Source of the DNA: a virus
Reading direction: 5' to 3' (one strand)
Virus record (IMG/VR): IMGVR_UViG_3300002835_000844
Span: 1 to 28,431 of that record
Length of the DNA: 28,431 bases
Position numbers and translations under genes: made by a program. Positions 3,625-27,897 of the stretch are shown piece after piece. The notes under the pieces are model-generated. The model was given only the letters and a program-made list of their open reading frames with translations, had not been told where the DNA came from and did not search any database. How positions within the stretch are numbered: position 1 is the stretch's first letter; each line of letters starts with the position of its first letter.

Positions 3625-3789
3625 ATGAACGAAGTAACAGAAACAAAGAAGTATGGTTGTGGATGCGGTCGAAGCCCGACTGGCGTTTGCACTGGATTGC
3701 ACAAGTTAACAAATGAGCAGTATAAGGCTCATCTTGAAGAACAGAAACAATTAAACGAGCAAACAAAACCACAACTCTTACAAGGATAA
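3625..3789 (+). CDS. 54-residue protein with CDGSH-like Cys3His signature
   Basis: The protein begins MNEVTETKKY and then has CGCGRSPTGVCTGLH, that is C-x-C-x7-C-x3-H. The CDGSH iron-sulfur signature is C-x-C-x2-(S/T)-x3-P-x-C-D-G-x-H, so this peptide has the same ligand set with one residue fewer between the second and third Cys and with TG in place of DG. The remainder is a charged, probably helical tail rich in Gln, Glu and Lys. The start is ATG 3625; an open frame reaches back to 3547 but overlaps the SGNH gene. It could bind a 2Fe-2S cluster or a zinc ion. The ligand pattern is seen directly; the cofactor is an inference. It lies directly before the tmRNA gene. Confidence 0.7.
   Translation: MNEVTETKKYGCGCGRSPTGVCTGLHKLTNEQYKAHLEEQKQLNEQTKPQLLQG
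3697..3726 (+). promoter_or_regulatory. Possible promoter for the tmRNA gene
   Basis: TTGCAC (3697-3702) and TATAAG (3721-3726) are 18 bases apart inside the end of the preceding small gene. Transcription would start near 3733, about 60 bases before the acceptor segment of the tmRNA. The match is moderate, and readthrough from the promoter at 2462-2490 would also transcribe the tmRNA. Confidence 0.3.
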
Positions 3790-3791
3790 TA

Positions 3792-4062
3792 ACAGCGTAA
3801 ACATTTAGGTAAAGGCATCTTGGACGGGGTTTCAATACCCCCATCTCCACCAAAAGCACATCTTGAAAAGTCTTGGTGTGTTTTCTGAGGGGATGACAGG
3901 TTTCGACAGGGTGAGTAATAGACAAAATGCGCTCGTCAGGCGAATGACGATAATATAGCAAAACTAGTAAATGCAAACGATGATTCATTTACACCTATGG
4001 CTCTCGCTGCCTAATAAGCACATTGAGCACAAAGAGTTGACCGCTCGGTAACAGAAAGGTCT
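3792..4062 (+). ncRNA. ssrA: Circularly permuted (two-piece) tmRNA gene
   Basis: The gene encodes the halves of tmRNA in reversed order. The acceptor segment (about 3792-3852) comes first: a T-arm with stem GGGGT/ACCCC, then CATCTCC, discriminator A and an encoded CCA at 3850-3852. A 36-base spacer (3853-3888) with its own hairpin follows. The coding segment starts at 3889 with GGGGATGACAGG and a TTCGAC D-loop-like stretch typical of tmRNA 5' ends. GGGGATG (3889-3895) pairs with CATCTCC (3842-3848) over seven pairs, including the G-U wobble at the third pair that identifies alanine acceptors. CAAAATGC (3923-3930) pairs with GCATCTTG (3815-3822) with one mismatch, as helix P2. A CGTCA/TGACG stem (3934-3949) precedes the tag, and after the tag GAGC/GCTC (4025-4028, 4043-4046) interleaves with GACC/GGTC (4039-4042, 4058-4061) as an H-type pseudoknot. 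The RNA would rescue stalled ribosomes with SmpB. The exact 5' and 3' ends are estimates. Confidence 0.92.
3970..4017 (+). other. tmRNA proteolysis-tag reading frame
   Basis: The tag reads NANDDSFTPMALAA followed by two TAA stops. UAGUA (3965-3969) just before AAT matches the position of UAGUC before the resume codon in Escherichia coli tmRNA, so AAT 3970-3972 is the likely resume codon. GCA 3973-3975 is the alternative and would shorten the tag by one. The 14-residue length and the AND block align with the Caulobacter-type tag AANDNFAEEFAVAA, and the LAA end is the ClpXP/ClpAP recognition end. Confidence 0.85.
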
Positions 4063-4063
4063 G

Positions 4064-4091
4064 GGGTGGTGGTGCGAACCACCACCCTTTT
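4064..4091 (+). terminator. Intrinsic terminator after the tmRNA
   Basis: A perfect ten-pair stem (4064-4073 with 4078-4087) closes on a GCGA tetraloop and is followed by TTTTC. It directly follows the tmRNA coding segment, so it probably sets the 3' end of the precursor. Confidence 0.9.
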
Positions 4092-4119
4092 CTTTCCACT
4101 GCAATAATGGAGACTTAAC

Positions 4120-18064: not shown

Positions 18065-18313
18065 ATGTGTATAGAATCTAGTGCAATTTATATGATGCAG
18101 ATGATTGACGCGAAAAGAGTCAGTTTGATATCTCTTTCAGAAGAAGAAAAATCCTTTTTGACTTCAAACAATCTGCAAGAAAAAATCGACGCTCACGAGG
18201 CATATATTGCTGCAATGATGCGATTAAAAGATATAGAGGACTCGTGTAGAAAACAGTACGGTGACGATATTATTAACAAATTAATTAGAGGTATGCCGCT
18301 TTCCCAGGTTTAG
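18065..18313 (+). CDS. Small helical protein of unknown function
   Basis: This 82-residue protein is predicted to be mostly helical and charged (SLSEEEKSFLTS, then EKIDAHEAYIAAMMRLKDIEDSCRKQYGDDIINKL). I recognise no family. The ATG at 18065 has no strong ribosome site, and an ATG at 18092 is possible. It is in the same direction as, and 21 bases after, the preceding gene. Its size and helical nature would fit an assembly chaperone, but nothing specific supports that. Confidence 0.55.
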   Translation: MCIESSAIYMMQMIDAKRVSLISLSEEEKSFLTSNNLQEKIDAHEAYIAAMMRLKDIEDSCRKQYGDDIINKLIRGMPLSQV

Positions 18314-18357
18314 GTAAAATAATCAAGATTATCCTCTGTCTCATCGGGGGATTACCA

Positions 18358-20340
18358 TTGTTGCAGACATTAGCCTTAATGTTTTCCTGCGTCCCTATCC
18401 CATTCGTTAAAAATGGTGGGTTGAACTTCGCACAAACTGGATTTGGTAAATTCCTCACTAGCATGAAGAATTTCTTTGACAAGGGAGCAGATATTGTTTC
18501 TAATTTCTTTAAACAATATTTCCGCAACCCTCTAGTTGATGGATTTAAACAATTTAGAAAAGAAGTTTTAGATCCAGTCCAGGAATTTTTTGCTACACCA
18601 TTCGATTGGTTTAATGAAGAATTCGACAAATACGGTGCGAATAATTATGCTGGATTAAACGAAAGATTTCCTTACATTGCTGGAAACACAAGCGTCCAAG
18701 CAACCTTTAATGCACTAGAATTATCACTCGGAAAAGCCCAAAATTTTGCTGATAACTATCAAATTGGTCCATTTACTTTTGGGCAGTTGGCAACGATTGC
18801 ACAAAATGCATCGCTTCAAGCAAGCATACAACAGTTTAGAGATCATACTGACGCGCTTTCTGGTGTTAAGTCCAAAATGGCTTATGATCTTATTACCTTG
18901 TATGGTAATGTTGCGAGCGTTGGTGCAACAGCCAACATTGCTTCTAGCAATGTGGTAACACCAAATCTAAGTTCAACTGCATATCCTATATTTGATTATG
19001 GCGACACTATTATTATTGATACTCAAACAAAAGTTATAACCGAAAAGGTATTTGCAGCCCATGCTTCTGGAAGTGTATCTATTGATATCTCTACTAATAA
19101 TGTAAAGGTTACAACCGCAAATGTTGGAACTTTAAATCTAATGAACTGTTTATTGTCTTCCTCAGGAACAATAAATTTAAACACAAACATGGCTATTACT
19201 GTTAATGATGAGATTCGAACAATTCAATCTATTAATGTCGCTGGCGATTATTTGTTAGTGGATCTACCATTTGATTCTTCAGTCACTGGTGCTACTCTTT
19301 ACAAAGAAACATCGTTTATCGTAAATACAGCGTTTACAACTACTAAAACTAATGAAATTGTATACAGAAGAACACCGTTTGTTTGTAATTCTGAGTGTTT
19401 GGATACGGTCATTACTGGTAACGGAACTACCTGGACTTCCCAGCTTGAAGTTGGTAATAAAATTATTTACGATACCAAAGAGTTTATTATTGAGGAAGTG
19501 ACAGACACAACTATTACTGTTAACGACCAACTTACATTAACTCGAAATCTTCCTGTTTATAAAGTTAATAACGAAATTGAGGTGATGTCGATAGGTGAGG
19601 ATATTGATCCTGATGAAATTATTAATGGATTTAGCATGATTGAAACAATGACTGGTGATCCAAACTTTATGAAGGGTGTAAAATCAAGAGTTCGTTTAGC
19701 AAACGGGAAATACACATCAGTTGCAACTGAAAATCCTACCGATGCAGCACAGTCTTTGTTTAAAAAAGAATTGTTGGTTCAGGCTAAAGATGCTCTGCAG
19801 CGCATGAAATATGATTTGAATGACGCTAAAACCAGGGGAATGAATGATGCTAGTTTAAATGTGGCGATTAATCGCACTATCACTAATTTTAAAAATACTA
19901 AAGAAGACATTATAGCTGCGATTGAACGCGACAAACAAATTATTAAGAATGTTAAAAATTTCGTATCTGCATTAGGCAAGTTGTTTTCTCTGGCTTGTGG
20001 AAAGAAAAAGAAGAAAAAAGGCGACAGTTCTTCCGATGATTACTTAAACATCATTACAGTGCCATATCCAGTTGAGGATGGGTGTACTGCTAATACTGGA
20101 CAATTTATTCAAATCTTAGATGACTTTGATTCTGAGTTTAACCAAGACGGATTTGTAGGACCAACAATTAACGCTAACACCAGCATTGCTGCAACCAATC
20201 AGTTTGATGGTTCTGATGTTATTATTGGACCTCTACCAAATCAAACTCAGGGCACAGGAACTGGGGAAAGCAATGTTGGCATCGATGGTCGCGATCCAAG
20301 CGTCACTGTACCAGAAGATCCTTGTTCAAAACCGTGCTAA
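18358..20340 (+). CDS. Large structural protein with shared beta module
   Basis: This 660-residue protein has a hydrophobic N-terminus, a helical part to about residue 200, a beta-rich part (about 200-410) and a helical part (about 430-550) ending in a cluster of Lys (CGKKKKKKGDSSS), then an acidic Gly/Thr-rich tail ending DPCSKPC. Residues about 251-321 contain the module (IN..GDYLLVDLPF...LYK) that also occurs in gp7 and gp8 of this phage, and residues 340-395 hold a related GNGTTWTSQLEVGNKI repeat. It is placed between the spike and gene 25 and is surely a virion protein, perhaps a baseplate or fibre component. TTG 18358 has GGGGG eight bases upstream; the frame is open up to 18289, so a longer form from a rare start cannot be excluded. 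Confidence 0.72.
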   Translation: MLQTLALMFSCVPIPFVKNGGLNFAQTGFGKFLTSMKNFFDKGADIVSNFFKQYFRNPLVDGFKQFRKEVLDPVQEFFATPFDWFNEEFDKYGANNYAGLNERFPYIAGNTSVQATFNALELSLGKAQNFADNYQIGPFTFGQLATIAQNASLQASIQQFRDHTDALSGVKSKMAYDLITLYGNVASVGATANIASSNVVTPNLSSTAYPIFDYGDTIIIDTQTKVITEKVFAAHASGSVSIDISTNNVKVTTANVGTLNLMNCLLSSSGTINLNTNMAITVNDEIRTIQSINVAGDYLLVDLPFDSSVTGATLYKETSFIVNTAFTTTKTNEIVYRRTPFVCNSECLDTVITGNGTTWTSQLEVGNKIIYDTKEFIIEEVTDTTITVNDQLTLTRNLPVYKVNNEIEVMSIGEDIDPDEIINGFSMIETMTGDPNFMKGVKSRVRLANGKYTSVATENPTDAAQSLFKKELLVQAKDALQRMKYDLNDAKTRGMNDASLNVAINRTITNFKNTKEDIIAAIERDKQIIKNVKNFVSALGKLFSLACGKKKKKKGDSSSDDYLNIITVPYPVEDGCTANTGQFIQILDDFDSEFNQDGFVGPTINANTSIAATNQFDGSDVIIGPLPNQTQGTGTGESNVGIDGRDPSVTVPEDPCSKPC

Positions 20341-20360
20341 ATATGTCGAGAGGTGCATAA

Positions 20361-20753
20361 ATGTCATTAGATGTTCGCGTATATAAAGATTTAGATTTAA
20401 ATTTTAAAGCCCATCCAGTAACAAAGGATGTAGTTAAACGCACAGGAAACGCAGCGATTATTGGTGCTCTTAAAAATCTTATTTTTACAAACCCATTTGA
20501 AAAACCTTTTCAGCCATTATATGGTTCAAAAGTTCGCTCTTTGTTATTCGAAGATGTATCATTTATTACTGCAAACATTCTGCAGACTGAGATTAATAAT
20601 ACCATAAAGAATTTTGAACCTCGTGTCGGCGTCGATGCGATTCGAGTTCAGGCTAATTTAGAACAAAATCGTTACGATATTACTATTAGATTTTATATTA
20701 ATAATCTTGAGGCACCAGTCACAATTAACTTTTTCTTAGAGAAGGTCCGTTAA
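20361..20753 (+). CDS. 25: gp25 baseplate wedge protein
   Basis: This 130-residue protein (T4: 132) is of the gpW/gp25 family. It has DLDLNFKAHPVTKDVVKRTGNAAIIGALKNLIFTNPFEKPFQPLYGSKV, the helix LLFEDV, and the conserved EPR motif in FEPRVGV, followed by a two-strand end (YDITIRFYINNLEAPVTINFFLEKVR). gp25 helps to form the core bundle of the wedge and joins the sheath to the baseplate. The ATG has GAGAGGTG upstream. It overlaps gene 6 by one base, and the order 25-6-7-8 follows T4-like phages. Confidence 0.95.
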   Translation: MSLDVRVYKDLDLNFKAHPVTKDVVKRTGNAAIIGALKNLIFTNPFEKPFQPLYGSKVRSLLFEDVSFITANILQTEINNTIKNFEPRVGVDAIRVQANLEQNRYDITIRFYINNLEAPVTINFFLEKVR

Positions 20754-22822
20754 TGGCTAATACAGACCAAAAACTAGTTGTTACAGAACTAGACTTTGCG
20801 CAGATTAAAACTAATCTAAAGAACTTTCTGCGCGATCAATCAGAATTTACTGACTTCGATTTTGAAGCCTCGGGCATAAGTACGCTATTGGATATTCTCG
20901 CATATAACACACATTACATGGCATATTATAACAATATGATTGCCAACGAAATGTTTCTAGACACTGCGATTCTTCGCGATTCTGTGGTTTCTCATGCTAA
21001 AATGCTGGGATATACGCCAGTATCTGCGATAGCACCAAGAGCAACAATTAATCTACAAATTATTAGACCAGCTAACGATACAACTGCAACACTAACTCTT
21101 CCAAGATTCACTCGGTTACAGTCAACACCATTAAATGGTGTATCATACACTTTCGTAAATACAGAAGACAAAACTACAAACTATGATCCAACTTGTAATC
21201 GCTTTTGTTTTGACGATTTGTACATATATCAGGGTCAACCGCTAACATACACATTCGTTTACAATGCTACCAATAATTCAGCTCAATCGTTTGAACTTCC
21301 AGACGCTGGCATTGACACCAGCACGCTAGAAATATTGGTGCAAGAATCTGCAACAAGTTTAAAAACTGAGAGATTTACGCTTGCAACTGATGCAACAAAT
21401 GTAACTTCGAACTCCACAGTCTACTTCATCGATGAAACTAGAAACGGAAAATACAAGATCTACTTCGGAGACGGGGTTATCGGCAAAAGTCTAACCAACG
21501 GAAATATTGTTGTAGCGAATTATCTAAGAACAGATGGCGCGGCGGCAAATAAATCAAATGCGTTTAGCCTTATTGATTCCGTTGGCGGGTTTACAGGTTC
21601 AATTGTTTTTCCAATCAAGGCAGCATCTGGTGGTAATACGCAAGAATCTGTTACAAAAATTAGATTTAGTGCACCAAAAGCCTATGTATCTAATAATCGT
21701 GGTGTTACAAAAGAAGATCTAATAGCTCTAATCAACAAAAACTACCCATACTTTGAAGCAGTTAATGTTTGGGGTGGTGAAGAAAACATCCCACCTGTTT
21801 ACGGTAAAGTATTCATAGCAGCAAAACCAACACTCGGTTTTGAGATTACAGACTCTGAAAAACTTGATGTGATTAATAATGTAATCAAACCAGTGTCAGT
21901 CGTTACTGTTATTCCAGAATTTGTTGATGTTGATTATAATTATCTACAAGTGTTTGCTGAAGTTTATTACGATGCAACTAAAACCACAAGATCTGCAGAT
22001 GCAATAAAATCTATTGTTCAAACTGCAATCACTAACTTCAAGAACACTGAATTGGATAACTTTAACAGTCGATTTAAATTGTCAAAGATGCTTCGTGCTA
22101 TCGACGACGCAGAAACATCTATCTCTTATTCTGATGCGGTTACTGTTATTGAGAAAAGACTTATTCCGCAGGTTGGTGCTGCTAGAAATTACACACTAGA
22201 CTTTGGTACACCTATCTCTCGCGAAGATCCTTCTTATAGAATCTACTCAACCCCAGCATTCGGACAATTCGATGCTGATGGTGTTCTTCGTAAGTGTTTC
22301 TTTGAAGAAACACCAGGATCTTCTTCTGGCGTTGAATCGATTACAATCAATTCGGCTACAGGTTCTTATCTAACCGCACCAACAATTTCTATAAACGGAG
22401 ACGGTGTTGGCGCTAATGCATATCCTGTGATTGTTAACGGTAAAATTACACAAATCGTTGTGGATAAACCAGGTGTTGGGTATACAACTGCTACAACACT
22501 ATTGTATTATCAAGACGAGATTGATACAACCGCGTCTTTCACTGTAAATATGCAAGGTCGTTTCGGTACACTGCGCAGTTACTTTTTTGATAATAACAAT
22601 ATCAAAACAACATTGGATGCTGAGGCTGGAACAATTGATTATCAGCTAGGTAAGATTACCTTGCAAGAATTTGATCCGTTCTCAATCGAAGATCCACTAA
22701 AGATCTTTAGAATGGTTGCTAAACCAGAAACAAATAACTTTGAATCTGCTCGTAGTCGAATTATCACTATCGACGAAGAAGATACAAATGCTATCAACAT
22801 TAGTGTTAAATCTCTCTCTTAA
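20753..22822 (+). CDS. 6: gp6 baseplate wedge protein
   Basis: This 689-residue protein (T4: 660) has the gp6/gpJ-type N-terminus: FAQIKTNLKNFLRDQSEFTDFDFEASGISTLLDILAYNTHYMAYYNNMIANEMFLDTAILRDSVVSHAKMLGYTP. Later come YKIYFGDGVIGK and the NRGVTKEDLIALINKNYPYFEAVNVWGGEENIPPVYGKVFIAAKP block, then KPVSVVTVIPEFVDVDYNYLQVFAEVYYD. gp6 dimers form the inner ring of the baseplate that triggers sheath contraction. Near residues 526-589 it carries a GxGY-type repeat module (GDGVGANAYPVIVNGKI, GVGY) also found in gp7 and gp8 here. It overlaps gene 25 and gene 7 by one base. Confidence 0.95.
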   Translation: MANTDQKLVVTELDFAQIKTNLKNFLRDQSEFTDFDFEASGISTLLDILAYNTHYMAYYNNMIANEMFLDTAILRDSVVSHAKMLGYTPVSAIAPRATINLQIIRPANDTTATLTLPRFTRLQSTPLNGVSYTFVNTEDKTTNYDPTCNRFCFDDLYIYQGQPLTYTFVYNATNNSAQSFELPDAGIDTSTLEILVQESATSLKTERFTLATDATNVTSNSTVYFIDETRNGKYKIYFGDGVIGKSLTNGNIVVANYLRTDGAAANKSNAFSLIDSVGGFTGSIVFPIKAASGGNTQESVTKIRFSAPKAYVSNNRGVTKEDLIALINKNYPYFEAVNVWGGEENIPPVYGKVFIAAKPTLGFEITDSEKLDVINNVIKPVSVVTVIPEFVDVDYNYLQVFAEVYYDATKTTRSADAIKSIVQTAITNFKNTELDNFNSRFKLSKMLRAIDDAETSISYSDAVTVIEKRLIPQVGAARNYTLDFGTPISREDPSYRIYSTPAFGQFDADGVLRKCFFEETPGSSSGVESITINSATGSYLTAPTISINGDGVGANAYPVIVNGKITQIVVDKPGVGYTTATTLLYYQDEIDTTASFTVNMQGRFGTLRSYFFDNNNIKTTLDAEAGTIDYQLGKITLQEFDPFSIEDPLKIFRMVAKPETNNFESARSRIITIDEEDTNAINISVKSLS

Positions 22823-25800
22823 TGTTTGCAAATAATTACATATCAACAATTGTAGAGAACCAGGTACCTGAGTTCGTAAGAGCCGATCATCCAACATTCG
22901 TGACATTGCTCAAAAAATACTATGAGTATATGGAGCAAACCAATAAAACATTAAGAGTCGGTAAAGACCTATATGATTACATGGATGTTGATACGACAAG
23001 AGCAGACTTGATCAAGTATTTTAAGACGAAGATTATTCCAGATTTTCCTGAAGAAACCGAACTATCTACTGAGAAACTGATAAAGGCAGCAAAATTTTTC
23101 TACTCTAAGAAAGGCTCCGCTGAATCCTTTAAGTTTCTATTCAGAACATTATACGGGCAGGAAGTTGACATTTACTTCCCGAAAGAAGATATCCTTAAAG
23201 TATCTGATGGTAAATGGAAACAACCACAAGCACTTCGCCTAGCATTTACCGACACCAGTTCTCTTGTTACGGGTGGTAATGTCAATGTGTTTGCAGTTAC
23301 TGCTAATACAATAAATGCTAATGGATTTAATATCCTATCAAAAGGCATTACAGTAAATTCATATATTCGTATCGGCGATTCTCGTAGAAAAGTTGTCACG
23401 ATTAACACATCAGGCGATTTTCTTCGAGTTGATATTCCATTCGCTAACACATCAAACGCGCAAACATTTAATTCTGCTAAATTGTTCAAGGTAGAGTTGA
23501 GCGAGTACACCAATTTTGACATTAAACTACTCGAAAGAAAACTAGGCATCGGCGAGATTTCTAGAACGACTTGCGTTATTGAAAAAGCAGTACTAACTGT
23601 TGACGGTGAAACTGGTCGCGAGTTCGTAGAACTTTATGTGTCGAATGTAACTAGACTATTTGAAGCTGGTGAAAATCTAGTCGTAAAGTATACTGACACC
23701 AATGGTGTTGAGCAAACATTTAAGTCTAAGATTATCTCCTTGCTATCAAACATCAGTTTGTTCAGAAATAGATTTGGCGTTGTTCAAACAGGTAGAAAGT
23801 ATAAAACTGGAGATCCAGTGGTATTGTTTGGTGGTCTCACCGATTCACCTGATGCTGTCAAGGGTATCGCCGTTGTTAACAATGTTTCTACGGGATCTAT
23901 TGAATCTGTTGAAGTTATCCAACCAGGATATTTCTTTAGAACAGAACCAAATTCATTGGTTCGTATAATCTCAAGTTCAGGTATCGGTGCCAATGTTCTG
24001 ATATCAGGTATCTACGATGACGGTGGTGCCAATAGTGCAAACATCCAGTTTAATACAGATGCTATTGTGTATAAAAAAGATATCCTTTTAAATGGATTAG
24101 AATATGATTTTGATAATATTACAGCGTTTGCAAATCAAACATCTGGTGCGGGAAACACAACAACAACAATTAATTTAAACACTGCATTTTATACTGCTAG
24201 CACAACTAATGATTATTATAAATCTTTTGTTGTGCAAATCCTTGACGGCACTGGTTCTACAGGTTCACCGAATTCAGCACAAATTACTGGATACAATGGA
24301 ACAACTAAAATCGCAACACTATCTCTAGCTCTCGGCGCAGCTGTAGATGGCACTAGCAATGTTAAAATTTATGCAAATGCGCAAACTGAAATAGGTAGAG
24401 CATTAACATTCGAAACAATCACACTCGGCAAGGTTCGTGCGCTGGACTTAGATGACGGTGGATCGTTCTTCGAAGAACCGCCGACATTTGATGCCATATC
24501 ATTATACGAATCTGACTATTCCCTAGACCAAGGATTTTTAACCATTCCTTCTGGTCAATTTTCGCAATATAATCCATCCGCTTCTCCGCCAACAATTCGA
24601 TTAAATTCGTCAAACTCATCATATAGTTTGGCGAATGGATTCTACACTGGCTCTCGCCTTTTCTTGGATGTGGGTGATACTGCTCACTATGCAGAAGTTG
24701 TAGATTACATTGTAAACAATCCAGGTTCTTCTTCTAACACTAAAACATTAGTTCTAGATCGACCTTTTGAAAATAACATTAATCAAACAAACATCTTAAA
24801 CTTTAACTTGTTTTTTGACTTTAGACCAAATGTTCGCGGTCCAGGCAAACTTGGTATTATCTTAGTGAGGAACGGTGGCAGCGGATACAATGTAACTAAT
24901 AACATCATTGAGTTTATTGGTACTGGTGTTGGTGCAAATGCATATCACACAGTAGACGCGAACGGAAGTATAACGAGCGTCACGATAGATAATCGCGGTG
25001 AAGGTTATCCAGAAGCACCATCTATCTTGATTAGAGATACGAATACTGGAAATGTTGCAACGGGTTCTGGTGCGCTATTCGACATTTATCTATTGAGTGA
25101 TGGTGAAGAGTTTGCCGCCGAAACATCGGATATCGGTCGTATTCAAGACTTTAGAATTCTGAACCGTGGATTCGAGTACGCTAATACACCATTGACATCG
25201 CTTAAAGTTGTCGACATACTTACAGATAATCTTGCTTCTGGGCAACTTGTCTTGTCTGGAGATTCTGTCTGGCAGGGTGGTGTTACTAATGCAGATGCTA
25301 CCTTCCGCGGAACCGTTGACGACTCTTATAGATCTGATGCAAGCAATACTGTTATTCGTGTGTTTAACTACTCTGGTTCGATTAACACATCAGAGCCGAT
25401 TCGTGTGGCTACAAGTTCTGGAAACCTCACTCTAAACCTATCTACCGCCAATGCAACGATATCATTTAACGATGTTAACGATGCAGTTGAACGCAAATAC
25501 CCACATTTCTATGGAGATGGACTAGCCAAAGCCAATACCGAGTTCCTAAGAGGGTTGATCAAATACGGTGGATTCTACCTAAACACAGATGGATTCCTCA
25601 GCGCCGATAAGAAGATACAAGATAGCGACTACTACCACAATTTCTCATATGAAATTTCGTCTGAAAAGTCTCTAAACGACTACACTGAGACTGTGAATCG
25701 CGTTGCACATCCAGCTGGCATGCAATTGCTATCGAAATATCTGTTGAAGAATATCACCCAAGACCTAGTAACTATAGCGGCAAATGTGTACTCGTCAAAT

Positions 25801-26268
25801 ACCTTGCAAACTACAAATGCTAATACATCACACAGCAGCAATGTTTTCTTTGGTAATAACTCAAACTTTACACTGAATGCCAATATCGGTGACTTAATTG
25901 TAATAAATACAACGGAAACGGCATCTTTAAAACAGTATACTAGAGTTGTCGCTAATGTTGTAAATGCGAATGTTATTTGGCTAGAATCGGCGATTGGTGG
26001 AATAGGTGACGGTAGATTACGAACAACAACTAGCAATGCTAATGTTATTGTGTTTGCGAATTCTTCAGCCGTCACAGAAAGTCTAGAAGCTGGTGACAAC
26101 ATCAGTTTCAATGTCTCTAGCACAACTTATGATAGATATGTCGTTTCAACGCCAACAAGTAATGTCGTATTGTTAAACGCAGCGGTAACTGCATCAGGAA
26201 ATGTTGTCTATAGGAAAAATCCAACATACAATGTTGTTTCTTATAGAATTATCCGAACTCAAGGGTAA
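22822..26268 (+). CDS. 7: gp7 baseplate wedge protein
   Basis: This 1148-residue protein (T4: 1032) begins with FVRADHPTFVTLLKKYYEYMEQ, LYDYMDVDTTRADLIKYFKTKIIPDFPE and FYSKKGSAESFKFLFRTLYGQEVDIYFPKEDILKVSDGKW, the N-terminus of gp7-like wedge proteins in marine T4-like phages. The middle holds several beta modules: one at about 151-224 shared with gp8 and the 660-residue protein, and GxGY modules at about 353-403 and 673-736. Near the C-terminus, KYGGFYLNTDGFLSADKKIQDSDYYHNFSYEISSE and VAHPAGMQLLSKYLL are conserved, followed by an Asn/Thr-rich beta tail. gp7 bridges inner and outer baseplate. It overlaps gene 6 by one base. Residues about 413-533 have more AT-rich codon use than their surroundings. 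Confidence 0.88.
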   Translation: MFANNYISTIVENQVPEFVRADHPTFVTLLKKYYEYMEQTNKTLRVGKDLYDYMDVDTTRADLIKYFKTKIIPDFPEETELSTEKLIKAAKFFYSKKGSAESFKFLFRTLYGQEVDIYFPKEDILKVSDGKWKQPQALRLAFTDTSSLVTGGNVNVFAVTANTINANGFNILSKGITVNSYIRIGDSRRKVVTINTSGDFLRVDIPFANTSNAQTFNSAKLFKVELSEYTNFDIKLLERKLGIGEISRTTCVIEKAVLTVDGETGREFVELYVSNVTRLFEAGENLVVKYTDTNGVEQTFKSKIISLLSNISLFRNRFGVVQTGRKYKTGDPVVLFGGLTDSPDAVKGIAVVNNVSTGSIESVEVIQPGYFFRTEPNSLVRIISSSGIGANVLISGIYDDGGANSANIQFNTDAIVYKKDILLNGLEYDFDNITAFANQTSGAGNTTTTINLNTAFYTASTTNDYYKSFVVQILDGTGSTGSPNSAQITGYNGTTKIATLSLALGAAVDGTSNVKIYANAQTEIGRALTFETITLGKVRALDLDDGGSFFEEPPTFDAISLYESDYSLDQGFLTIPSGQFSQYNPSASPPTIRLNSSNSSYSLANGFYTGSRLFLDVGDTAHYAEVVDYIVNNPGSSSNTKTLVLDRPFENNINQTNILNFNLFFDFRPNVRGPGKLGIILVRNGGSGYNVTNNIIEFIGTGVGANAYHTVDANGSITSVTIDNRGEGYPEAPSILIRDTNTGNVATGSGALFDIYLLSDGEEFAAETSDIGRIQDFRILNRGFEYANTPLTSLKVVDILTDNLASGQLVLSGDSVWQGGVTNADATFRGTVDDSYRSDASNTVIRVFNYSGSINTSEPIRVATSSGNLTLNLSTANATISFNDVNDAVERKYPHFYGDGLAKANTEFLRGLIKYGGFYLNTDGFLSADKKIQDSDYYHNFSYEISSEKSLNDYTETVNRVAHPAGMQLLSKYLLKNITQDLVTIAANVYSSNTLQTTNANTSHSSNVFFGNNSNFTLNANIGDLIVINTTETASLKQYTRVVANVVNANVIWLESAIGGIGDGRLRTTTSNANVIVFANSSAVTESLEAGDNISFNVSSTTYDRYVVSTPTSNVVLLNAAVTASGNVVYRKNPTYNVVSYRIIRTQG

Positions 26269-26271
26269 CAA

Positions 26272-27897
26272 ATGAAGTCATTAGTATTAAAAGATTTTGG
26301 TATTACAAACGCAAAGAATTTTGAGAGCATGGTCTCAGTTCCGCTTGCAAATGTTTATGTTATGGTTGGTAGATCTTTAGCATGGGCTAACACGGCTAAT
26401 GCAGATCTATTGGATGATGTTACAATTGCAGAACCATACGATACAACAGAATACAAGTTTGATTTGCAAAAAGACGGGCAACTATTAAAGAAGATTACTG
26501 GCAGCGACATTCAGCCAGTTATCCCTAGAGTTGACTGGGCAGCAAATACTGTATATGTTGCATATGACCAAACAGCAAATTTGTTCATCAAGGTGTTGGA
26601 TACCGCTGTCACTGGCGGTAATGTAAATGTTTCGCTTTCTTTGGCGAATACAGTAAACGCAAATAGCATTAATCTTGCTGCTGCAACACCTGCTCTCTCA
26701 GCGGGATCGTTTATCAAGATCGGCGATGAAACGAAAGAAGTCGTAAGAATTAATGCCGTTGGTGATTTCTTAACAGTCAACACAGTATTCAGTTCAGCGT
26801 ACACATCCGCGAACTTGTTTAAGGTTGATATTTCTCAAACGCAGTATTCTAACAAATTCTATGTTAGAAACTCACAAGACCAGGTCTTTAAGTGCCTATT
26901 TAATAATAACGGCGCAGAATCTAATACTATGCCACAGATCACCATCGGTGGTGATTTACCAGAAAACCCATACATTGAAACGGCTGATGGGTACAAGTGG
27001 AAGTATATGTACAGCATTCCAACTGGACTAAAGAATAAATTTTTCACCGATAAGTATATGCCAGTTCTTCGTGATACTATTGTTTTTGATAATGCAAAAG
27101 ATGGTCGCATAGATATCATTAAAATTGTTGACGGTGGAACAGGATACTATGCAGGTAGTTCTGTAAACAACTACTCAGTCGTCAGCGTTACTGGCGATGG
27201 AACTTTGGCTAATGTTAGCGTTGATGTTGTTAATGGTACCATTGTAGATGTTAACATTCTAAACGGTGGTAATAACTATAGCACCGCAACCGTCACCATA
27301 CAAGATCCGTTGCAACAAGCCATCGGTAACACAGCAAATCTTCAGGCAGTTATTAGCCCACAATATGGTCATGGATTTGATCCACAAAGAGAACTAGGTG
27401 GGTCTAGCATCATGGTTTCTGTTGACATTGAAGGCGATGCAGATGGAAACTTGCCAGTTCAAAACGATGGAACAGACTTAATCAGACAAATGTGTTTGGT
27501 TAAAGATGTAAAATTAGCAACTGGTGCGTTTGGAACTGCTTCGTATTATCCAATGTATACAACAATTTCAACATCTAATCCACCAGTAAACTTTTCTCAT
27601 AACGAAATAGTGTATGTTGGATCTAGTTTTTCAACCGCAACATTTAGCGCAAGAGTAATGCATTTTGACGATACTACTAATACTCTTTATGTAAATAACA
27701 TTGTTGGAAATGTTAACAACATTGAAAACGAAACAATCTACCAGAAGGACGCTCCATCAGCGTTCGCCAAGGTATTTGATGTGACAAAACCAGATATAAA
27801 TATTTTGTCTGGAGAAATTTTGTATATTGAAAATAGAGCAAAAATTACTCGTAGTGGAAATCAAACCGAATCAACTAAATTTGTTGTAGAATTTTAA
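26272..27897 (+). CDS. 8: gp8 baseplate wedge protein
   Basis: This 541-residue protein (T4: 334) begins with VYVMVGRSLAWAN and DVTIAEPYDTTEYKFDLQKDGQLLKKITGSDIQPVIPRVDWAANTVYVAYD, then FYVRNSQDQVFKCLFNNNG, PYIETADGYKWKYMYSIPTGLKNKFFTDKYMPV and the C-terminal YYPMYTTISTSNPPVNFSHNEIVYVG, all typical of gp8. The extra 200 residues are accounted for by two inserted modules: one at about 116-188 (GSFIKIGDETKEVVRINAVGDFL), shared with gp7, and a GxGY module at about 279-346. gp8 dimers sit at the periphery of each wedge and bind gp10. The ATG is four bases after the gene 7 stop, with AAGGGTAACAA as ribosome site. Confidence 0.9.
   Translation: MKSLVLKDFGITNAKNFESMVSVPLANVYVMVGRSLAWANTANADLLDDVTIAEPYDTTEYKFDLQKDGQLLKKITGSDIQPVIPRVDWAANTVYVAYDQTANLFIKVLDTAVTGGNVNVSLSLANTVNANSINLAAATPALSAGSFIKIGDETKEVVRINAVGDFLTVNTVFSSAYTSANLFKVDISQTQYSNKFYVRNSQDQVFKCLFNNNGAESNTMPQITIGGDLPENPYIETADGYKWKYMYSIPTGLKNKFFTDKYMPVLRDTIVFDNAKDGRIDIIKIVDGGTGYYAGSSVNNYSVVSVTGDGTLANVSVDVVNGTIVDVNILNGGNNYSTATVTIQDPLQQAIGNTANLQAVISPQYGHGFDPQRELGGSSIMVSVDIEGDADGNLPVQNDGTDLIRQMCLVKDVKLATGAFGTASYYPMYTTISTSNPPVNFSHNEIVYVGSSFSTATFSARVMHFDDTTNTLYVNNIVGNVNNIENETIYQKDAPSAFAKVFDVTKPDINILSGEILYIENRAKITRSGNQTESTKFVVEF
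27795..27802 (+). promoter_or_regulatory. Candidate late promoter box inside gene 8
   Basis: TATAAATA occurs about 105 bases before the ATG of the following gene, inside the end of gene 8. It would allow separate late transcription of the next gene. One or two such matches are expected by chance, so support is weak. Confidence 0.2.

What the first reader, a model, noticed from the sequence alone, without database searches (positions are those of the whole stretch)
19110..26835. One beta module recurs in three virion proteins
The 660-residue protein (about 251-321), gp7 (about 151-224) and gp8 (about 116-188) share a pattern: N..N, then I.IGD..+.V..IN..GDFL.V...F, then LFK. gp7 and gp8 also share the lead-in TGGNVNV. 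Copies seem to have spread between baseplate genes, explaining why gp7 and gp8 are longer than in T4. They may be exposed decoration or adhesion domains.
Basis: seen in the sequence. Interest (0 to 1): 0.5.

Follow-up and report, generated by a model that had tools for sequence, protein, structure and literature searches.

The report
Mobile beta-barrel inserts in phage baseplate
In an uncultured T4-like phage the same small barrel-shaped protein part has been inserted, apparently sometimes one copy inside another, into several proteins of the tail's baseplate, and related phages carry it at other places, in other numbers or not at all, so these phages seem to enlarge their landing gear by reusing one portable part whose job is not yet known.

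Summary
The three stretches are homologous: Smith-Waterman scores exceed all of 2000 shuffles; BLASTP E is 3e-15, 3e-6 and 4e-6; no hits in reversed or shuffled ORFs. The module is an ~80-residue beta-barrel: in a confident gp8 model (pLDDT 87.6) the body matches T4 gp8 (Z 23.3) and the module matches the insertion barrel of the phage LKA1 tailspike (Z 9.4, rmsd 2.0). Of 2200 ORFs from 81 contigs 95 carry it: gp7, gp8, the protein after gp8, the 660-aa protein and one unassigned; none of 54 gp6 and 53 gp25 does. Relatives show empty sites, and one gp7 copy looks horizontally acquired. Spread between genes is favoured, but old. The module explains only ~80 of gp8's 207 extra residues over T4. 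Outward exposure is untested; adhesion has no support. I favour structural insertions at the wedge periphery.

The parts
19087..19332 (+).
18883..19086 (+). First half of a probable outer module A copy in the 660-aa protein (residues 176-243)
   Evidence: hhalign probability 77-78 alone, 95 when joined to residues 322-345; VIA ranges around 184-340
19321..19392 (+). Probable second half of the interrupted outer copy in the 660-aa protein (residues ~322-345; edges uncertain, overlaps neighbouring parts by a few residues)
   Evidence: join test: probability 95 against 72-73 for two control joins, but 79 for another choice of edges
19378..19572 (+). Probable further module A copy in the 660-aa protein (residues ~341-405)
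   Evidence: hhalign probability 95 against far copies but 1.5 against window-type gp8 copies; local pLDDT 71-83 at ~351-390; VIA row 341-405
23266..23502 (+). Module A copy in gp7, site 1 (residues 149-227)
   Evidence: site empty in L013, L014, L021, L026
25759..26031 (+). Distant module A copy in gp7 (residues ~980-1070; HMM core 995-1057)
   Evidence: HMM i-E 7e-7 after five iterations but only 0.41 after three; hhalign probability 94.5
26005..26265 (+). Weaker distant module A copy at the C-terminus of gp7 (residues ~1062-1148)
   Evidence: hhalign probability 86.3; not found by HMM
26608..26850 (+). Module A copy in gp8, site 1 (residues 113-193)
24130..24378 (+). A second mobile segment, 'module B', in gp7 (residues 437-519); absent in L002, L010, L013, L014; in L007, L021, L026 a module A copy lies within it near its end
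18358..20340 (+). 660-aa protein holding the copies; start codon uncertain; found only in this clade
22822..26268 (+). gp7-type baseplate wedge protein, 1148 aa
   Evidence: PF23786 E 6e-10; PHROG baseplate wedge families; position between gp6 and gp8 as in T4
26272..27897 (+). gp8 baseplate wedge protein, 541 aa
   Evidence: PF09215 E 3e-12; VIA Z 23.3 to T4 gp8 1n7z

Best explanation
A portable ~80-residue beta-barrel domain (module A) has been inserted repeatedly into loops of baseplate wedge proteins of a group of uncultured T4-like phages. Shown: the copies are homologous; they occur at several distinct sites in gp7 and gp8, in the protein encoded after gp8 and in a clade-specific 660-aa protein; sites are full in some relatives and empty in others; copies occur alone and in arrays. 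Supported but weaker: copies nested within another module, and horizontal movement of a copy between lineages. Inferred: the barrel's ends lie close together, so it can be dropped into a surface loop without disturbing the host fold; copies arise by recombination (duplication within a genome, exchange between phages) and are kept as structural insertions that enlarge, brace or re-space the outer wedge, while the inner ring (gp6, gp25, gp53) is left free of them. A weak surface-contact role is possible but secondary.
For: Homology with controls. Fold: gp8 body = T4 gp8, Z 23.3; [quoted passage not shown] a lambda gpJ row (490-566, Z 6.5, a middling value) also falls on a segment described as inserted, 483-569 (PMC10721106 passages). 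The poor 660-aa model independently ranks the same LKA1 barrel first (Z 9.5, rmsd 1.6, 68 aligned). Empty sites in gp8 (50 of 81 ORFs lack site 1) and gp7. Other sites: gp8 235-299 in L073/L074 only, and a further site in the 8 gp8s with three copies each; up to 8 copies in one gp7 at i-E<1e-3, 9 in L115. Horizontal: L007 gp7 is 82-97% identical to L011 in 16 of 20 comparable 60-residue tiles, but holds at 513-601 a copy that L011 lacks and that is 65-67% identical to copies in L021 and L026, whose backbones are 23-65% identical to L007 by tile. Distribution: 34 gp7, 33 gp8, 16 next-gene, 11 660-aa, 1 unassigned of 95 positive ORFs; 0 of 54 gp6, 0 of 53 gp25, 0 of 8 gp53, 0 of 57 gp5-like. No tryptophan in 57 copies.
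Against: gp8 site 1 needs only two changes on the gp8-body tree, so at that site the module is mostly inherited vertically, and loss cannot be told from gain. A module tree with all gp8 site-1 copies as one clade is worse by 34 log units but not rejected (p-AU 0.108), so copying between gp7 and gp8 is not proven; that tree has 76 columns for 132 rows and joined long branches. No orientation, contact or function was tested. Sequence similarity to the LKA1 barrel is not significant (hhalign 1-10%). The claim that A sits inside B in gp7 rests on the alignment; removing A raised the B score only slightly in L007 and L021 and not in L026. The split copy in the 660-aa protein depends on the chosen edges.
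Confidence: 0.62

Rival explanations
1. Surface adhesion: the barrels are outward-facing domains that bind host polysaccharide or other surfaces weakly, as proposed for phage Ig-like domains.
For: gp7 and gp8 are peripheral in T4 (PMC3004832 passages); some copies match PHROG tail-fibre families (phrog_1980, 12 of 57 members, best E 9e-7; the first ~70 positions of that profile); in gp8 the module varies faster than the C-terminal body in 10 of 12 relatives compared.
Against: No tryptophan in 57 copies; conserved columns are hydrophobic core, glycine/asparagine turns and one basic residue. The closest fold match, LKA1's insertion barrel, has no demonstrated binding role of its own (PMC5701251 passages). 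No carbohydrate-binding family among the Pfam rows.
Confidence: 0.2
2. Ancient shared domain with differential loss: the module was part of these baseplate proteins early and was lost in some lineages, with little or no movement between genes.
For: gp8 site 1 needs a minimum of two changes on the tree; window copies are near saturation at third codon positions; an all-gp8-site-1 clade is not rejected (p-AU 0.108).
Against: Different insertion sites in gp8 (L073/L074 against the others); 0 to 9 copies in gp7; the L007 copy is absent from its near relative L011 and resembles copies of a distant lineage; gp7 and gp8 copies of one genome are 36-51% identical (12 genomes), while the window's gp8 copy is only 20-32% identical to gp8 site-1 copies of L012, L013, L022 and L025.
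Confidence: 0.13
3. Compositional convergence: asparagine/threonine-rich beta segments that look alike without common descent.
For: The copies are rich in N, T, S and V.
Against: No hits in reversed or shuffled ORFs of the same composition; control slices of the gp8 body and 12 other gp7 tiles score at most 2.8%; ordered motif and fold agree.
Confidence: 0.02

Closest known systems
Insertion domain of Pseudomonas phage LKA1 tailspike gp49 (PDB 4ru4, residues 283-370)
   Same: Six-stranded beta-barrel that interrupts its host domain; best PDB match of the module in the gp8 model (Z 9.4, rmsd 2.0, 74 aligned) and of the 660-aa model (Z 9.5); similar order of motifs by eye.
   Different: Single copy in a tailspike; no significant sequence similarity (hhalign 1-10%).
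Inserted segment of lambda gpJ HDIV (residues 483-569)
   Same: Matches the module in fold (8k35_A 490-566, Z 6.5, rmsd 3.0, 69 aligned) and is described as an additional inserted beta-sandwich (PMC10721106 passages).
   Different: Middling Z that may mean only a common arrangement; no sequence similarity (hhalign below 1%); single copy.
Ig-like domains scattered over phage virion proteins (Fraser et al. 2006; recalled, and cited in PMC10721106)
   Same: A small beta domain reused in several virion protein types.
   Different: The fold rows that fall on the module are barrels of LKA1, Chi, Mystique, F1-ATPase and Uba1; the module is inserted in loops and in arrays of one protein.
Domain mosaicism of phage proteins (Smug et al. 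2023, PMC10684548)
   Different: The passages seen do not describe this module, its arrays and nesting, or its restriction to some wedge proteins.
T4 gp8 (PDB 1n7z)
   Same: Body of the window's gp8: Z 23.3, rmsd 2.9, 263 aligned; PF09215 E 3e-12.
   Different: T4 gp8 is 334 aa; no hit of the module HMMs in the T4 stretch.

Membership tests
T4 gp8 family (Phage-Gp8) | Sequence profile match above the curated cut-off | tested here: met
   PF09215 46.7 bits against a cut-off of 25
T4 gp8 family (Phage-Gp8) | Fold of the T4 protein over the body | tested here: met
   1n7z Z 23.3, rmsd 2.9, 263 aligned
LKA1-type insertion beta-barrel | Same barrel fold | tested here: met
   Z 9.4, rmsd 2.0, 74 aligned in a model with block pLDDT of about 72-89 over the module; Z 9.5 with the poor 660-aa model
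LKA1-type insertion beta-barrel | Lies as an insertion inside another domain, with module-free relatives | tested here: met
   Empty sites in gp8 and gp7
LKA1-type insertion beta-barrel | Sequence homology with the LKA1 domain | tested here: inconclusive
   hhalign 1-10% with a single LKA1 sequence; no PDB sequence hit below E 0.27
Phage Ig-like domains | Ig-type beta-sandwich | tested here: inconclusive
   No row titled as Ig among the 50 shown; 2 of 57 members match TIG at best E 0.0034; a missing row is no proof
Carbohydrate-binding module | Demonstrated glycan binding | not testable with these tools
   Indirect only: no tryptophan in 57 copies
Named family in Pfam or NCBIfam | Significant match by more than stray members | tested here: not met
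   Pfam: 57 members scanned, each listed family matches at most 2, best E 0.0015; NCBIfam: two families with one member each, named as unrelated enzymes
PHROG tail-fibre families (phrog_1980 and others) | Profile match | tested here: inconclusive
   12 of 57 members match phrog_1980 (best E 9e-7), 10 match phrog_17834 (2.8e-5); the window's gp8 copy matches only phrog_21417 (E 0.0015)

The most novel reading that the evidence does not exclude
Module A behaves as a mobile protein domain of the baseplate: it spreads by recombination between neighbouring wedge genes and between phage lineages, accumulates in arrays (up to 8-9 copies in one gp7) and inserts into other modules, including copies of itself, so that outer-wedge proteins of these phages are built up like nested dolls while the inner ring stays clean.
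Probability: 0.42. Interest if true: 0.6.

Novelty: new variant of a known kind. Interest (0 to 1): 0.45.

Why it matters
gp7 and gp8 differ greatly in length between these T4-like phages. A single portable barrel that can be followed from empty site to filled site to array gives a concrete, testable way in which virion machinery grows, and the site-matched pairs with and without it (gp7 of L007 against L011; gp8 with and without site 1) are natural tools for asking what such inserts do. If they prove to carry surface contacts, they would also bear on host range in uncultured aquatic phages; if not, they are an example of structural padding that selection tolerates at the wedge rim.

Tried and rejected
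A search of viral contigs with the whole module alignment was not possible because no stretch was conserved enough (an error); I used single proteins instead. The module was not found in the bacterial and archaeal species genomes by pattern search (reaches close relatives only). tblastn of the tandem array of L077 and of the 660-aa protein against 50,697 phage records gave no match. No solved chain matched the module profile by sequence at E below 0.27. The module HMMs found nothing at i-E<0.5 in stretches of seven named phage records (T4, HTVC008M, S-SZBM1, phiM19, Melnitz-3, LKA1, lambda); these were parts of the records, and the recall for divergent copies is unknown.

Rejected: recent gene conversion between gp7 and gp8 in the window (within-genome identity 44.5% against 40.8% between genomes; third codon positions 39%). 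Rejected as sole cause of gp8's length: the module explains ~80 of 207 residues. The 660-aa structure model is poor (pLDDT 44.8), so its fold matches are only supporting. VIA lists are second looks at Foldseek's matches, so absence of Ig or P22 coat rows is not evidence. A T4 row (5iv5_BJ 761-845, Z 8.2) has model range 69-507 and could not be assigned to the module. The test that module B is completed by removing the nested A was only weakly positive. Counts include near-identical contigs: 155 copies at i-E<1e-8 fall to 90 at 70% identity; 81 gp8 ORFs are 67 distinct bodies. The 57 copies of A3 are a hand-chosen subset of those 90. ORFs labelled 'gp10' in my scripts are those similar to the ORF after gp8 (P0005, DUF4815); in S-SZBM1 and HTVC008M the gene in that place is annotated as tail fibre connector and VrlC, so that label is mine. 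The one unassigned positive ORF (L076 10692-14135) lies downstream of gp8 and may be part of that same gene.

Literature: searches listed no paper whose title or abstract start describes this module. Passages were read of PMC7029224, PMC5701251, PMC10721106, PMC3004832 and PMC10684548; no paper was read whole. Subscription papers and preprints are not held.
Full report
What was asked.

Context. The window is a 28,431-base virus record. gp6, gp7 and gp8 follow each other as in T4; gp7 and gp8 match baseplate wedge families (PF23786 E 6e-10, PF09215 E 3e-12; PHROGs). The 660-aa protein has no significant Pfam, PHROG or phage-record match and was found in 19 viral loci of this clade (some are contigs already fetched). 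The module lies at gp7 149-227, gp8 113-193 and 660-aa 244-325.

Is it more than chance? Yes. Pairwise scores of 92, 98 and 172 exceed the maxima of 2000 shuffles (63, 64, 74). BLASTP gives E 3e-15 for gp7-gp8 and 3e-6 and 4e-6 for the pairs with the 660-aa protein. From the 80 gp8-bearing loci and the window I listed 2200 ORFs. An HMM of the three window copies hits 43 domains at i-E<1e-3 and nothing in reversed or shuffled ORFs; after five rounds it hits 180 domains in 95 ORFs, again with none in either control. These are 34 gp7, 33 gp8, 16 of the protein after gp8, 11 660-aa and one unassigned ORF downstream of gp8. Profiles made separately from the copies of gp7, gp8, the 660-aa protein, the next protein and the far relatives find each other with probabilities of 65-99.6%; six slices of the gp8 body score at most 2.8%.

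More copies than three. Tiling gp7 in 15 pieces against the far copies gives 95.6% at 140-235, 94.5% at 980-1070, 86.3% at 1062-1148 and below 1% elsewhere. In the 660-aa protein the stretch 326-410 gives 95% and 176-245 gives 77%. The fold rows agree: Uba1-type rows span about 184-340 with about 67 aligned residues, and one row covers 341-405 with 65.

Fold. The gp8 model from 39 sequences has pLDDT 87.6 and pTM 0.72. Its body matches T4 gp8 (1n7z, Z 23.3, 263 aligned). Residues 106-189 match the LKA1 tailspike gp49 at 281-372 (Z 9.4, rmsd 2.0, 74 aligned), a Chi tail-tip chain (Z 8.2) and the Mystique tail tube (Z 8.0); lambda gpJ, T5 pb9, F1-ATPase and Uba1 rows follow at about Z 6, where a match may mean only a common arrangement. 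[quoted passage not shown] The lambda gpJ row falls on a segment described as an inserted beta-sandwich at 483-569 (PMC10721106 passages). The 660-aa model is poor (pLDDT 44.8), yet its first PDB row is the same LKA1 barrel (Z 9.5, rmsd 1.6). Sequence comparison with LKA1 is not significant (1-10%).

Empty sites and movement. In gp8, site 1 is filled in 31 of 81 ORFs; 48 have no copy, 25 have one and 8 have three. Empty-site relatives run straight through the position. L073 and L074 have their only copy at another loop, and the 8 three-copy gp8s use a further loop. Site 1 needs at least two changes on the gp8-body tree, so it is mostly inherited. In gp7, site 1 is empty in L013, L014, L021 and L026, and a second segment (module B, 437-519 in the window) is absent in L002, L010, L013 and L014. 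In L007, L021 and L026 a module A copy interrupts the aligned B segment near its end, though removing it improved the B score only slightly in L007 and L021 and not in L026. L007 gp7 is 82-97% identical to L011 in 16 of 20 comparable tiles, but its copy at 513-601 is absent there and 65-67% identical to those of L021 and L026, whose backbones match L007 at 23-65% per tile. I take this as horizontal gain of a cassette. gp7 copy number reaches 8 and 9 in L115.

Age and direction. Window copies agree at 35-39% of third codon positions. gp7-gp8 identity within genomes averages 44.5% (12 genomes) against 40.8% between genomes, so there is no strong recent homogenisation. In a tree of 132 copies the window-type gp8, 660-aa and gp7 site-1 copies and seven copies from the next protein of far relatives form one set of 38 (SH-aLRT 97). 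Holding all gp8 site-1 copies together costs 34 log units but is not rejected (p-AU 0.108), and the tree warns of few columns and long branches. Copying between genes is thus favoured, not proven.

Where it sits and what it does. In T4, gp7 and gp8 are at the baseplate periphery while gp6, gp25 and gp53 are central (PMC3004832 passages). None of 54 gp6, 53 gp25, 8 gp53 and 57 gp5-like ORFs carries the module. None of 57 aligned copies contains tryptophan; conserved columns are barrel-core hydrophobics, G/N/D turns and one basic residue. In gp8 the module is less conserved than the C-terminal body in 10 of 12 relatives, with L002 and L006 as exceptions. I therefore favour tolerated or useful structural insertions at the wedge rim over adhesion; orientation, contacts and binding were not tested.

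Known or new. Reuse of small beta domains and mosaic baseplate proteins are known (PMC10684548 passages), and the fold is known from LKA1. The sequence family is not covered by a Pfam or NCBIfam model; some far copies match PHROG tail-fibre families weakly; a gp8 of this length and fold is already deposited as a baseplate wedge subunit of an uncultured phage (A0A6J5KS80, 534 aa, TM 0.83-0.84). What I did not find described in the searches is this barrel's repeated, array-forming and probably nested insertion into wedge proteins. I rate it a new variant of a known kind.

Noticed in passing
window 3743-4105 (+): A tmRNA gene: ARAGORN calls a permuted tmRNA with tag ANDDSFTPMALAA at 3761-4105; Rfam tmRNA_permuted 126.7 bits and beta_tmRNA 116.9 bits over the full model, which hints at a betaproteobacterial host. 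None was found in the 15 of 80 relatives' loci scanned, which cover mainly the baseplate region.
   Followed up: partly
window 22322-22555 (gp6), 24844-25038 (gp7), 27103-27306 (gp8): A second repeat with GxGY-type motifs recurs in gp6, gp7 and gp8 (gp7-gp8 BLASTP E 7e-4; gp8-gp6 E 3.7e-5; gp6 matches the gp8 PHROG at E 1e-8; motif positions).
   Followed up: partly
window 24130-24378 (gp7 437-519): Module B: in several copies in gp7 of L015-L019 and L022 and also in the protein after gp8 (59 hits at i-E<1e-3, none in reversed ORFs).
   Followed up: partly
window 18310-18360: The start of the 660-aa gene is unclear: a TTG is the first start codon, but relatives L004, L009 and L010 begin upstream at MIGGLPLL, a stretch the window encodes in frame without a usual start codon.
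   Followed up: no
L001 14247-14444 and similar loci: The protein after gp8, cut by the window's end, carries a module A copy at ~871-936 in the window's clade.
   Followed up: partly
L121 2977-3195, L122 4-198: Two module hits in ORFs of 968 and 316 aa that match none of the window's five baseplate proteins, so the module may occur in other protein types too.
   Followed up: no
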